A DNA stretch of 34,841 nucleotides from Acidimicrobiales bacterium. GTDB taxonomy: Bacteria > Actinomycetota > Acidimicrobiia > Acidimicrobiales > CADCSY01. A program made the position numbers and the translations under genes. The DNA lies in contig DATKDW010000081.1 of NCBI GenBank assembly GCA_035512495.1, positions 1 through 34,841 on the forward strand, written 5' to 3'. How positions within the stretch are numbered: the stretch's first letter is position 1; the number at the start of each line of letters is the position of its first letter. Positions 7,501 through 11,690 of the stretch are shown piece after piece. The notes below the pieces were generated by a model, which did not search any database, was not told where the DNA came from, and saw nothing but the letters and a program-made list of their open reading frames with translations.

Positions 7501-8610
7501 TCAGAGGCGGGGGACCGGACCCGTCCGGGGACGGGCGAAGCGTCCGAGCCCACCCACGGTGGGGTCGGGTGCCACGACGGCGACCGGCACGGCCGCGTCG
7601 GCGCGCTCCCCGAACCGGCCCAGGCGCCGCAGGGCGGGCACCGGCTCTCGAAGGGCGAAGACCGCAGCAGCCGCGCAGGCTGCAAGGAGCAGGACGCCAA
7701 GCAGACGCAGGTCGTTCCCGTCGGCGGCCGCCGACTGGACCGCGACCGGCTGCTCGGCCGGGGGCGTCACGGGGAGGGCCGTCTGGTCGCCACCGCCCAC
7801 CGCGGCGGGATCGCCGGCCGGCACCTGGGCGCTCGGCGGCGGCTCGACGTCGAAGTCGCTCCCTCCGCCCGCGGTCCCGCCTCCCGAGGGCGTGAAGCCA
7901 CCGCCGCTCCCGCCCGACGAGCCGTCGTCGAACGAGTCGCCACCGGCGGGGTCGAACTCGCCATCGCTCTCGCCACCATCGCCGCCCTCGAAGTCCGACA
8001 GGTCGAAGCCGCCCTCGAAGGCGGATCCTCCGCTGGTGGTGGTGAGGCTCTCGTCGGTGGGGGCCTCGAAGGCGATCTGGAAGGTGGAGCCGTTGGCGCC
8101 TTCCGGGAAGGTCGGGTCGACGCCGGGGACGATGGCCACGTCGAGCGTGTTGCCGTCGATGAGGCTGTCGAGCCGGAAGGACCAGGTCGCGCCGTCCGCC
8201 GAGCGAGAGCCGGACACCGAGCCGCTGGAGCAGTCGACCTCGGGGGCCTCCTCGAAGTCGCCACCCTCTGCCGGCTCCCACTCCGATGCCGTCCGGCAGA
8301 CGTTCATCAGCGCCATCTCGGTGGGGTCGCCGCCGCTGTCCTCGGCGACCTCCAGCGTCAGCATCGCGGTGGTCTCGTCGTCGCCGAGGGTGTATCGGAG
8401 GGCGCTGATCGCCAGGGGGCCACTCGAGGTACCGGCGACGAGGAGGCCGCCCTCGGGCACCGACGGGGGCTGCACCGGGACGACGCCGACGCTGCCGCGG
8501 AACCACCAGCCGGACTGCTCGAGCTCGGCCGCACCTGCCGGCGCCGCGCCCAGCGCGACGGTGGCGCCGACGAGTGCCAGCGCGGCGAGGCACCGGCGCC
8601 CACGCATCAT
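7501..8610 (-). CDS. Secreted, membrane-anchored protein of unknown function, last gene of the transporter operon
   Basis: This 369-residue protein is not one I recognise. A signal peptide (about residues 1-28, ending APAGAA) leads to a globular region (29-185) with many short strand-like segments and two cysteines (C105, C127) that could form a disulfide. Residues 190-270 form a Gly/Ser/Asp-rich linker (EFDPAGG, SFDDGSSGGSGGG). Residues 301-320 form a membrane helix, followed by an Arg-rich cytoplasmic tail, so the topology is type I. Its ATG overlaps the stop of the MFS-ABC gene (ATGA), so it is translated with the transporter. The linker resembles that of the operon's binding protein. An accessory surface subunit is a reasonable inference, without homology support. 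Confidence 0.75.
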   Translation of the reverse strand: MMRGRRCLAALALVGATVALGAAPAGAAELEQSGWWFRGSVGVVPVQPPSVPEGGLLVAGTSSGPLAISALRYTLGDDETTAMLTLEVAEDSGGDPTEMALMNVCRTASEWEPAEGGDFEEAPEVDCSSGSVSGSRSADGATWSFRLDSLIDGNTLDVAIVPGVDPTFPEGANGSTFQIAFEAPTDESLTTTSGGSAFEGGFDLSDFEGGDGGESDGEFDPAGGDSFDDGSSGGSGGGFTPSGGGTAGGGSDFDVEPPPSAQVPAGDPAAVGGGDQTALPVTPPAEQPVAVQSAAADGNDLRLLGVLLLAACAAAAVFALREPVPALRRLGRFGERADAAVPVAVVAPDPTVGGLGRFARPRTGPVPRL

Positions 8611-11600: not shown

Positions 11601-11690
11601 CTTGGAGGGAGAGGAGATGAGCTCGGTGGGGTCGGCCACGGCCTCCTCGTGGGCGACCGGTGCGCTCTCGACGCTGGCCGGGTCGGTCAT
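8607..11690 (-). CDS. MFS transporter fused to LivF-like and LivG-like ABC ATPases
   Basis: This single 1027-residue reading frame holds three complete modules. Residues about 40-436 are a 12-helix major facilitator transporter with the loop 2-3 motif GVMGDRYNRVR. A helical linker (437-465) leads to a LivF-type ATPase: Walker A GTNGAGKS (K507), signature LSGGE (603-607), Walker B LLMIDE. After a second linker (about 700-730) comes a LivG-type ATPase: Walker A GPNGAGKT (K771), variant signature LSTGS (882-886), Walker B LLLDEQ (D906, E907) and H-loop H940. The start is fixed by an ATGA overlap with the permease gene, and the stop overlaps the next gene in the same way. Canonical Liv importers use separate LivF and LivG proteins and have no MFS part. 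The fusion may energise the LivH-LivM fusion encoded upstream; the role of the MFS module is unknown. Confidence 0.93.
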   Translation of the reverse strand: MTDPASVESAPVAHEEAVADPTELISSPSKMGGRLAAVTGGATGVPLAILFGLNFVDEFDRIAFATLTPEIRDAFSLSDAGIGAIGVISSVVILLLALPIGVMGDRYNRVRVAGFAAVLWGVMSVLTGVVPTVALLFAVRLLSGVGRIINEVVHPSLLADYYRPQNHPRVFQVHRLANPTSAVSGIVAGLIAAGLGWRWAFILLAIPTFVFLAFLSRLKEPRRGASVDAAAAEQAAEEAPVSFAEARRQLFAVRTLRRLWIGGFFLGIGYLAIGQFLSLFFESVYGFGPIGRGTVQVVFGAGAIVGLFVGGSLASKAAQAGHSARLATITGLSFVAFAVGLALMALAPVAALSVLFAFVLSAGVGAYQPAYYSLVGQVAPPRVRTQAYAYAIVFVGLGGFASIPLFELGETQGYRTAIVVLSAIIGLAGLIGASASRFVARDVEQAANALATQLRLREELASSGKQALLACRGVEVAYDQVQVLFGVDLEVRPGEIVALLGTNGAGKSTLLKAISGTVDPIGGAVFFDGRDITHADAVQTAKLGIVQVPGGKAVFPTLTVAEHLRAAGWLYRDDQAYLDQANEEVLTIFPRLRERISQMAGNLSGGEQQMLALGMAFIAKPKLLMIDELSLGLAPTIVEQLLGIVRRITEQGTAIILVEQSINVALTVAERAYFMEKGEVRFEGPTQELLERDDIVRSVFLQGASVATGQGGDKVQPVASRRTRVAADAPPVLEVRGLTKRFGGIRAVDDTTFTLRKGEILGLIGPNGAGKTTIFDLVSGFLTPDGGSITLDGTDVTTMAPDRRAWLGLGRSFQDARLVPSLTVAENVAIGLERHIELRDHVASALSLPGIVRSEEDVAWTVNDLVEMMNLGAYRDKFVRELSTGSRRIVDLAMCIAHDPTVLLLDEQSSGIAQRETEALGPLLERIQHETGCALLVIEHDMPLITTVSDRMIALELGHPIVEGTPDEVTTNPRVVSSYLGGDLSVINRSGATSEPDAEVVRTSTGPPSTGRRDRRAPLVAPGRKDR

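What the first reader, a model, noticed from the sequence alone, without database searches (positions are those of the whole stretch)
8607..11690. MFS transporter fused in frame to both Liv-type ABC ATPases
One 1027-residue frame contains a full 12-helix MFS module and two ABC ATPases with intact Walker motifs, all in the operon of a LivH-LivM fusion permease and a binding protein. Classical Liv importers have five separate proteins and no MFS part. The MFS module could be a second pathway for the same solute, an exporter balancing import, or a membrane anchor and sensor that keeps the ATPases at the permease. I know of no characterised example. The second ATPase also has a variant signature (LSTGS) and LLLDEQ where LLLDEP is usual.
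Basis: partly seen in the sequence, partly recalled or inferred. Interest (0 to 1): 0.88.

Follow-up and report, generated by a model that had tools for sequence, protein, structure and literature searches.

The report
Proton-type transporter fused to ABC motor
A whole spinster-like (MFS) membrane transporter is welded by a near-constant helix to both ATPase motors of a Liv-type nutrient importer, a real and recurrent design in one group of actinobacteria that I did not find described in print.

Summary
On the minus strand (8607-11690) one 1027-residue frame encodes a 12-helix MFS module, then a LivF-like and a LivG-like ATPase. It overlaps by ATGA with a LivH-LivM permease upstream and a protein of unknown function downstream. 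It is not an assembly error: in the same class at least 96 of 395 genomes carry one continuous MFS-to-LivF match, and the own genome has three paralogues. A second arrangement, MFS-LivF plus LivH-LivM-LivG, also recurs. In the loci examined the MFS sits on LivF. The connector is 22 residues in 46 of 51 proteins, while the stretch between the ATPases spans 35-107. The MFS resembles Spinster transporters and keeps several, not all, of their proton-coupling residues. It is mostly under purifying selection, has been swapped between systems and is absent from close sisters. Best reading: a working, exchangeable proton-coupled porter tethered one-to-one to a canonical ABC importer. Direction and cargo are unknown. 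A sensor or gate role is the main rival. Literature searches found no description.

The parts
8607..11690 (-). 1027-residue MFS-LivF-LivG fusion gene
10392..11561 (-). Spinster-like MFS module (residues about 44-433, consistent with 12 transmembrane helices)
10302..10385 (-). Connector helix (residues 436-463) of near-constant length joining TM12 to the first ATPase
9576..10292 (-). LivF-like ATPase (NBD1, residues 467-705), signature LSGGE, Q at the H-switch position
8742..9500 (-). LivG-like ATPase (NBD2, residues 731-983), family-wide signature LSTG, H940 at the H-switch
11687..14164 (-). LivH-LivM fusion permease, 825 residues; its stop overlaps the start of the fusion gene (ATGA)
14176..15960 (-). 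Binding-protein-like gene, 594 residues: N-terminal hydrophobic segment, long Gly-rich tether, then a domain related to divergent Peripla_BP_6 proteins
7501..8610 (-). P0003: protein of unknown function with an N-terminal and a C-terminal hydrophobic segment, overlapping the fusion gene by ATGA; relatives sit downstream of the ATPases in sister operons

Best explanation
This is a Liv-type ABC importer whose two ATPases are joined in one chain and whose LivF half carries, on its N-terminus, a complete Spinster-like MFS porter. Shown here: the anatomy, its wide recurrence, the near-constant helical connector, retention of several Spinster proton-coupling positions, purifying selection on the MFS in most pairs tested, and exchange or loss of the MFS as a unit. 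Inferred: the ABC core (LivHM plus LivFG plus binding protein) imports its solute by the ordinary ATP-driven cycle. The MFS module is a working proton-coupled carrier that moves the same or a chemically related compound by a second route, probably an anionic amphiphile because its cavity keeps an arginine at the Spinster substrate position and usually gains a second basic or polar residue. The fusion keeps both carriers together in a 1:1 ratio at the same place in the membrane. I think exchange or efflux of the imported compound or its product is somewhat more likely than a second uptake route, but nothing here decides the direction.
For: MFS module: best sequence match in the PDB is human SPNS1 (E 7.6e-14), then HnSpns; best structural match SPNS1 (Foldseek E 2e-11; VIA Z 40.2 over 405 residues at 3.1 A, tied with OxlT at 40.1 and others). 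Across 67 triple-fusion rows (some near-identical) the positions of HnSpns Asp41, Arg122 and Trp102 are D 65/67, R 64/67 and W 59/67; the motif-A relay Asp87-Arg91-Asp142 is 67/67 at all three; the Arg42 position is R 54/67 (roles from passages of PMC9440201). dN/dS in the MFS is 0.02-0.21 in 10 of 11 usable pairs (12 pairs, sharing members), in the range of the ATPases or somewhat above. Free-standing relatives exist (L106, L111, L114, L116, L145), so the module can exist as a separate protein. Swapping: the ATPase tree puts the window with L015 (99) and rejects the MFS grouping (p-AU 3e-5), the MFS tree puts it with L012-L014 and rejects window+L015 (p-AU 1.7e-7); identity to L015 is 36-65% over residues 31-270, 10-40% over 271-450 and 76-100% over 481-690, so it jumps at the connector. 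Sisters without the MFS have NBDs 77-87% identical and an intact LivHM operon (L020, L021), so the ABC core apparently does not need it. Connector: 22 residues in 46/51, TM12 span 28 in 51/51, inter-ATPase stretch 35-107.
Against: Two acidic residues central to characterised Spinster transporters are not kept: the Glu129 position is R, K or Q in 60 of 67 triples, and the Asp60 position is D in only 8 of 67, though present in the window. One of 11 usable pairs gives a dN/dS of 0.46 in the MFS against 0.16-0.17 in the ATPases (L050-L054). A near-constant connector is more than co-localisation needs and fits a mechanical or sensing role as well. No substrate evidence links the two carriers; neighbour genes are mixed and no background rate was measured. 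Direction of transport is not inferable. The alignment of D60 to HnSpns Asp41 is ambiguous: the phmmer alignment with HnSpns pairs D57 instead, that with SPNS1 pairs D60.
Confidence: 0.45

Rival explanations
1. Sensor or gate: the MFS binds solute or senses the proton gradient and passes its inward/outward state through the connector helix to LivF, turning the ABC importer up or down. Transport by the MFS itself is secondary or lost.
For: Near-constant connector length (22 residues in 46/51) and constant TM12 span (28 in 51/51) against a freely varying stretch between the two ATPases; continuous helix 436-463 in the model; attachment to LivF in the fusions examined, also where LivG is on another chain. 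Two Spinster protonation residues are missing. A sensor kinase-MFS fusion family (TC 2.A.1.34) is listed in PMC3924187 (passage).
Against: TM1 Asp, TM4 Arg and the motif-A relay are kept in at least 64 of 67. Sister importers with 77-87% identical NBDs do without the MFS. Exchange of one MFS for another would have to preserve a specific allosteric interface.
Confidence: 0.25
2. Anchor or assembly scaffold: the MFS only holds the ATPases at the membrane near LivHM.
For: Fused ATPase pair and fused permease give a two-chain machine, so the MFS could fix the ATPases in place.
Against: Conserved charged residues inside the transport domain and low dN/dS in most pairs; sister operons encode LivHM and LivFG without any MFS; an anchor needs no 12-helix carrier.
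Confidence: 0.1
3. Bystander fusion: the MFS carries an unrelated compound and was joined to LivF by operon read-through, with no working link.
For: MFS modules are swapped and lost; no substrate link was shown.
Against: The fusion is kept across at least 96 of 395 genomes of the class and in other classes of the phylum, in two arrangements, with a conserved connector. At least one replacement of the MFS ended in a fusion at the same place.
Confidence: 0.15
4. Shared motor: the ATPases drive or lock the MFS as well as LivHM, so that one ATPase pair energises two membrane modules.
For: Direct helical link from TM12 to LivF; the MFS-LivF pairing holds in both arrangements. Recalled precedents for secondary carriers boosted by ATPases: ArsAB and ECF transporters.
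Against: LivHM lies upstream in each of the 57 MFS loci whose contig reaches that far, so the ATPases have their usual partner. Whether the MFS has a surface like a coupling helix was not examined.
Confidence: 0.04
5. Assembly or frameshift artefact of the metagenome bin.
For: The source is a 97-contig draft genome.
Against: Same fusion in many independent genomes, including a single-contig one (L029, CP011489.1; G003); three paralogues in the own genome.
Confidence: 0.01

Closest known systems
LivFGHM / HAAT-family ABC importers (branched-chain amino acid, urea and related)
   Same: LivF- and LivG-like ATPases (best stretch for the UrtE and LivF models is NBD1, for the LivG and UrtD models NBD2; scores add both domains, so the cut-offs decide nothing), LivH-LivM-type permease (two BPD_transp_2 stretches), binding-protein-like gene in the same operon.
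   Different: Two polypeptides instead of four for the membrane-ATPase core, with an added 12-helix MFS transporter on LivF; family-wide LSTG signature in the LivG half. Cargo unknown.
Spinster (Spns) branch of the MFS: human SPNS1/SPNS2, HnSpns, MsSpns
   Same: Best sequence and structure matches of the MFS module; TM1 Asp, TM4 Arg, TM3 Trp and motif-A relay kept.
   Different: Glu129 (MsSpns Glu126) replaced by basic or polar residues, Asp60 (MsSpns Asp57) not conserved in the triple fusions; nearly invariant histidines H154 (65/67) and H174 (63/67); fused to ATPases.
LivF-LivG double-ATPase fusions of sister actinobacterial operons (L020, L021, L040 and others)
   Same: LivHM fusion or pair upstream, NBDs 64-87% identical, relatives of P0003 downstream in some.
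   Different: No MFS module.
Sensor kinase-MFS fusions (TC 2.A.1.34) and LplT-Aas-type MFS-enzyme fusions
   Same: MFS transporter fused to a cytosolic working domain (2.A.1.34 seen as a table line in PMC3924187; LplT-Aas recalled).
   Different: Cytosolic partners are a kinase or acyl-transfer enzymes, not ABC ATPases.

Membership tests
Liv/HAAT-type ABC importer | LivF-like and LivG-like ATPases with intact Walker A, Walker B and catalytic glutamate | tested here: met
Liv/HAAT-type ABC importer | LivH- and LivM-type permease domains | tested here: met
   two BPD_transp_2 stretches in P0002; BLAST homologues upstream in 57 of 60 MFS loci, the other 3 at contig edges
Liv/HAAT-type ABC importer | Type I binding protein (Peripla_BP_6) in the operon | tested here: inconclusive
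   P0004 has no Peripla_BP match; of 8 relatives scanned, L076 and L012 match Peripla_BP_6 weakly and below the cut-off (E 2.3e-5 and 8.9e-4), L017 matches Peripla_BP_4 at 0.03, the other 5 match nothing
Liv/HAAT-type ABC importer | Separate LivF, LivG, LivH and LivM polypeptides without MFS part (classical form) | tested here: not met
Liv/HAAT-type ABC importer | Transport of branched-chain or other hydrophobic amino acids | not testable with these tools
   no assay
Spinster (Spns) MFS transporters | Sequence and fold closest to Spns structures | tested here: met
   SPNS1 first; tied with OxlT and others within 1 Z unit
Spinster (Spns) MFS transporters | TM1 Asp (HnSpns Asp41) and TM4 Arg (Arg122) | tested here: met
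   65/67 and 64/67; D57 is an alternative partner of Asp41 in one alignment
Spinster (Spns) MFS transporters | TM4 Glu protonation switch (HnSpns Glu129, MsSpns Glu126) | tested here: not met
   R 25, K 25, Q 10 of 67; R147 in the window
Spinster (Spns) MFS transporters | Extracellular Asp (HnSpns Asp60, MsSpns Asp57) | tested here: not met
   D in 8 of 67 triples, although the window itself has D79 and the 7 MFS-LivF proteins have D
Spinster (Spns) MFS transporters | Proton-coupled transport | not testable with these tools
   no assay

The most novel reading that the evidence does not exclude
The fusion is a mechanically coupled hybrid: a proton-coupled MFS carrier and an ATP-driven ABC importer share one ATPase chain, so that the state of the MFS, set by ligand or proton gradient, gates ATP hydrolysis at LivF (or ATP hydrolysis drives the MFS). 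The MFS would be an exchangeable specificity or sensing cassette that gives one importer scaffold several personalities.
Probability: 0.25. Interest if true: 0.85.

Novelty: new variant of a known kind. Interest (0 to 1): 0.62.

Why it matters
Primary (ATP-driven) and secondary (gradient-driven) transporters are treated as separate worlds. Here evolution has stably joined a complete member of each in one chain, with a near-constant connector and an MFS module that is exchanged between systems. If the two halves work together, this is a natural test bed for whether a carrier can gate an ABC motor, or whether paired import and export of related compounds gives an advantage. The group carrying it appears to be the Acidimicrobiia (from record titles), many of them known from metagenomes.

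Tried and rejected
Assembly artefact: rejected, because the same fusion occurs in many independent genomes, some on single-contig assemblies.

Special catalytic defect of the second ATPase: rejected. LSTG is invariant in the 58-row alignment and the catalytic glutamate is kept. Two LivG frames outside the fusion, printed, read LSYGTTR (L140, an ordinary LivG) and LSTGSRR (L146, the unfused LivG of an MFS-LivF system); six LivHM-LivG chains read LSTGTRR.

Open-frame length as proof of fusion: rejected. Frames of about 1000 residues in L145 and L147 are long by chance upstream of an MFS without ATPase. I therefore counted fusions with a joint profile across the junction.

NCBIfam cut-offs as proof of identity: not used, because the whole-protein scores add both ATPase domains.

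Substrate from neighbour genes: tried and inconclusive. Of 107 neighbouring open frames (taken from 186 candidates at 51 loci found by a GC3 rule), Pfam matches were mixed: hexapeptide 10, PhyH 7, alpha/beta hydrolase 7, AMP-binding 6. No background rate was measured. The unrelated neighbours were put through the aligner only to use the tally mode of the scan.

Binding-protein ligand from structure: PDB sequence search gave nothing useful; no fold was predicted for it.

Full-length model against the PDB: the 50 hits listed were of the ABC ATPase kind, so the MFS was modelled alone.

Rows dropped: L082, L085 and L087 look MFS-less only because their contigs begin at or just before the ATPase; L087 begins with the MFS-type connector. 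They were left out of the MFS-less count (21 of 24 kept) but were still in the tree. L115 looks unfused only because the contig ends, yet it is one of the four 'single' rows and one of five in the tree. L093, L096 and L097 (short copies of other loci) were left out. Of the 20 loci (L118-L137) none was analysed as such.

Literature: ten searches, nine on the fusion and one on Spinster residues. Seen: listings of all; passages of PMC9440201, PMC3654945, PMC5001237 and PMC3924187; abstract, opening text and passages of the preprint PMC13192786. Nothing seen describes an MFS-ABC ATPase fusion. The library holds open-licence papers only.

Full report
What is there. The finding lies on the minus strand. 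Reading 8607-11690 backwards gives an ATG-to-TGA frame of 1027 residues. Pfam finds MFS_1 at residues 50-401, two ABC_tran stretches and the Liv-specific C-terminal motif BCA_ABC_TP_C. In NCBIfam the best stretch for the UrtE and LivF models is the first ATPase and for the LivG and UrtD models the second (scores add both domains). The gene overlaps by ATGA with the preceding LivH-LivM fusion permease (825 residues, two BPD_transp_2 stretches), and its own stop overlaps by ATGA with the start of P0003, a protein of unknown function with a hydrophobic segment near each end. Upstream lies a binding-protein-like gene with an N-terminal hydrophobic segment and a Gly-rich tether (43 of 91 residues at positions 40-130 are Gly). 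It has no Peripla_BP match itself; 2 of 8 relatives match Peripla_BP_6 weakly.

It is common in its group. A scan of genome contigs returned the best 80 of 142 loci. Of these 80, 56 carry the MFS in frame before the LivF-like ATPase; 24 do not, and 3 of the 24 are cut by a contig edge. The own genome has three more copies. In 395 genomes of the window's class, 118 have the MFS family at E <= 1e-40 (91 of 268 good genomes, 74 of 184 genera). With a profile spanning the MFS end, connector and LivF start, 106 of 395 match at E <= 1e-70. Every row listed runs from position 16 or less to at least 279 of 280, with no stop inside. The list is cut at E 9.4e-89; 96 genomes have a best match at or above that score, so 96 of 395 is a lower bound for true fusions, and the other 10 were not checked. 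Each genome was scored for only 4 to 6 candidates. Across the phylum, 20 of 396 genomes match the MFS profile at 1e-40, 7 of them from other classes; 10 of 11 loci fetched from those 7 genomes are fused and one, L145, is an MFS without ATPase. The class is probably Acidimicrobiia, judged from record titles and from G003, which has the same length as IMCC26256 and identical MFS and LivF. NCBI taxonomy, however, files IMCC26256 under Actinomycetes, unclassified, so the class name is my inference.

Two main arrangements. The commonest is LivH-LivM, then MFS-LivF-LivG, then binding proteins (43 of 60 MFS loci). The window's type has the binding protein first and P0003 last. A second arrangement has MFS-LivF as one protein of about 750 residues and LivH-LivM-LivG as another: 7 loci with MFS-LivF, 6 of them with LivH-LivM-LivG in one frame; in L102 that part spans two frames. 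L144 and L148 from other classes are the same. In L146 LivG is separate, and in L142 no LivG was found in the stretch fetched. In all of these the MFS is attached to LivF, and I saw none attached to LivG or the permease.

The connector. In 51 triple fusions the stretch from the invariant D442 to G464 is 22 residues in 46 (21, 23 or 24 in the rest), and R415 to D442 is 28 in all 51. The stretch between the two ATPases (G703 to F742 of the window) runs from 35 to 107 residues. The model of the whole protein (mean pLDDT 82.8, pTM 0.67) makes residues 436-463 one helix, pLDDT about 73-95, leading to the first ATPase strand; the placing of the domains relative to each other was not assessed. D442 is also present in the four 'single' rows, three of them truly unfused, so that residue belongs to the MFS rather than to the fusion.

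What the MFS is. The nearest solved sequences are SPNS1 (7.6e-14), HnSpns and EfpA. The MFS alone models at pLDDT 93.3; SPNS1 is the top match by Foldseek and by VIA-align, in the latter tied with OxlT and within 1 Z unit of several others. Mapping on HnSpns: TM1 Asp 65/67, TM1 Arg 54/67, TM3 Trp 59/67, TM4 Arg 64/67, motif-A relay D105, R109 and D160 67/67 each. The Glu129 position is R or K in 50 of 67 and Q in 10; the Asp60 position is D in 8 of 67. The seven MFS-LivF proteins keep the relay and Asp60 (7/7) but TM1 Asp only in 3 and TM4 Arg in 4. Roles of these residues are from passages of PMC9440201 and of the preprint PMC13192786. So the module works like a Spinster-type carrier in part, but fails two Spinster features and is not filed as a member.

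Evolution. In the LivF tree, fusions without MFS are nested among those with it. The MFS tree and the ATPase tree disagree: the ATPases join the window to L015 (support 99) and reject the grouping window+L012-L014 (p-AU 3e-5), while the MFS joins the window to L012-L014 and rejects window+L015 (p-AU 1.7e-7) (the groups were named after seeing the earlier trees). Window and L015 are 36-65% identical over residues 31-270, 10-40% over 271-450 and 76-100% over 481-690. L015's MFS is closest to L116, a free-standing MFS beside an acyl-CoA-ligase-like gene on the other strand. The partial MFS of L016, whose ATPases are 88 and 79% identical to the window's, is 36% identical to the window's and 28% to L015's. 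So among the window and its four nearest ATPase relatives in that tree (L015, L016, L020, L021), three MFS modules only 28-37% identical to each other and two absences occur. dN/dS in the MFS is 0.02-0.21 in 10 of 11 usable pairs of 12 (pairs share members); L050-L054 gives 0.46, and L029-L038 is saturated. The MFS is thus kept by selection but replaceable.

The ATPases. Key residues of both Walker motifs, the signature region of NBD1 (S604, G605, G606) and of NBD2 (L882, S883, T884, G885) are invariant in the 58-row alignment, with Q660 at the NBD1 H-switch and H940 in NBD2. This gives one canonical composite site (NBD2 Walker motifs with NBD1 signature) and one with both unusual parts (NBD1 with Q660, NBD2 LSTG). 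A Q at the H-switch is also seen in separate LivF proteins (L017, L077), so the asymmetry is at least partly ordinary for LivFG. Motif roles are recalled knowledge.

Mechanism. LivHM, the ATPases and a binding-protein-like gene are all present, so ordinary ABC import is the default. The MFS keeps marks of a carrier, exists as a free-standing protein in relatives, and is exchanged as a unit; I therefore read it as a working, tethered proton-coupled carrier (0.45). The near-constant connector keeps a sensing or gating role alive (0.25). A pure anchor, an unrelated bystander and a shared motor are less likely. Cargo and direction are unknown. The basic residues in the cavity suggest an anionic compound, which is inference.

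Novelty. No search of the open-licence literature found such a fusion (calls listed under Tried and rejected). The parts are known; their combination is a new variant, not a new kind of transporter.

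Noticed in passing
window 31761-34841 +: A second, apparently ordinary Liv-type system on the other strand: Peripla_BP_6 binding protein (31761-33263), then LivH-like (about 33308-34033) and LivM-like (from about 34195) matches in different frames, cut by the window end.
   Followed up: partly
window 7501-8610 -: P0003, a protein without Pfam or NCBIfam match at 0.001, with hydrophobic segments near both ends, overlapping the fusion gene by ATGA; relatives lie downstream of the ATPases in some sister operons with and without the MFS.
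   Followed up: partly
window 14176-15960 -: Binding-protein-like gene with an N-terminal hydrophobic segment and a roughly 90-residue Gly-rich tether before the ligand-binding domain.
   Followed up: partly
window 17903-19465 +: Long-chain fatty acid-CoA ligase-like gene about 2 kb from the operon, on the other strand.
   Followed up: no
L114 (G221:C22): An MFS of the fused type ends shortly after the connector region with a stop and is followed by a binding-protein-like gene, with no ATPase match between: possibly a loss of the ATPase part.
   Followed up: partly
MFS residues H154 and H174 of the fusion protein: Two histidines are nearly invariant in the triple fusions (65/67 and 63/67); of the seven MFS-LivF proteins 3 keep H154 and none keeps H174. 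Their role is unknown.
   Followed up: no
L070 (PKRH01000008.1): Record titled Thermoanaerobacterales carries a triple fusion whose MFS and LivF are identical to those of G263, which is in the window's order; the title is probably wrong.
   Followed up: no
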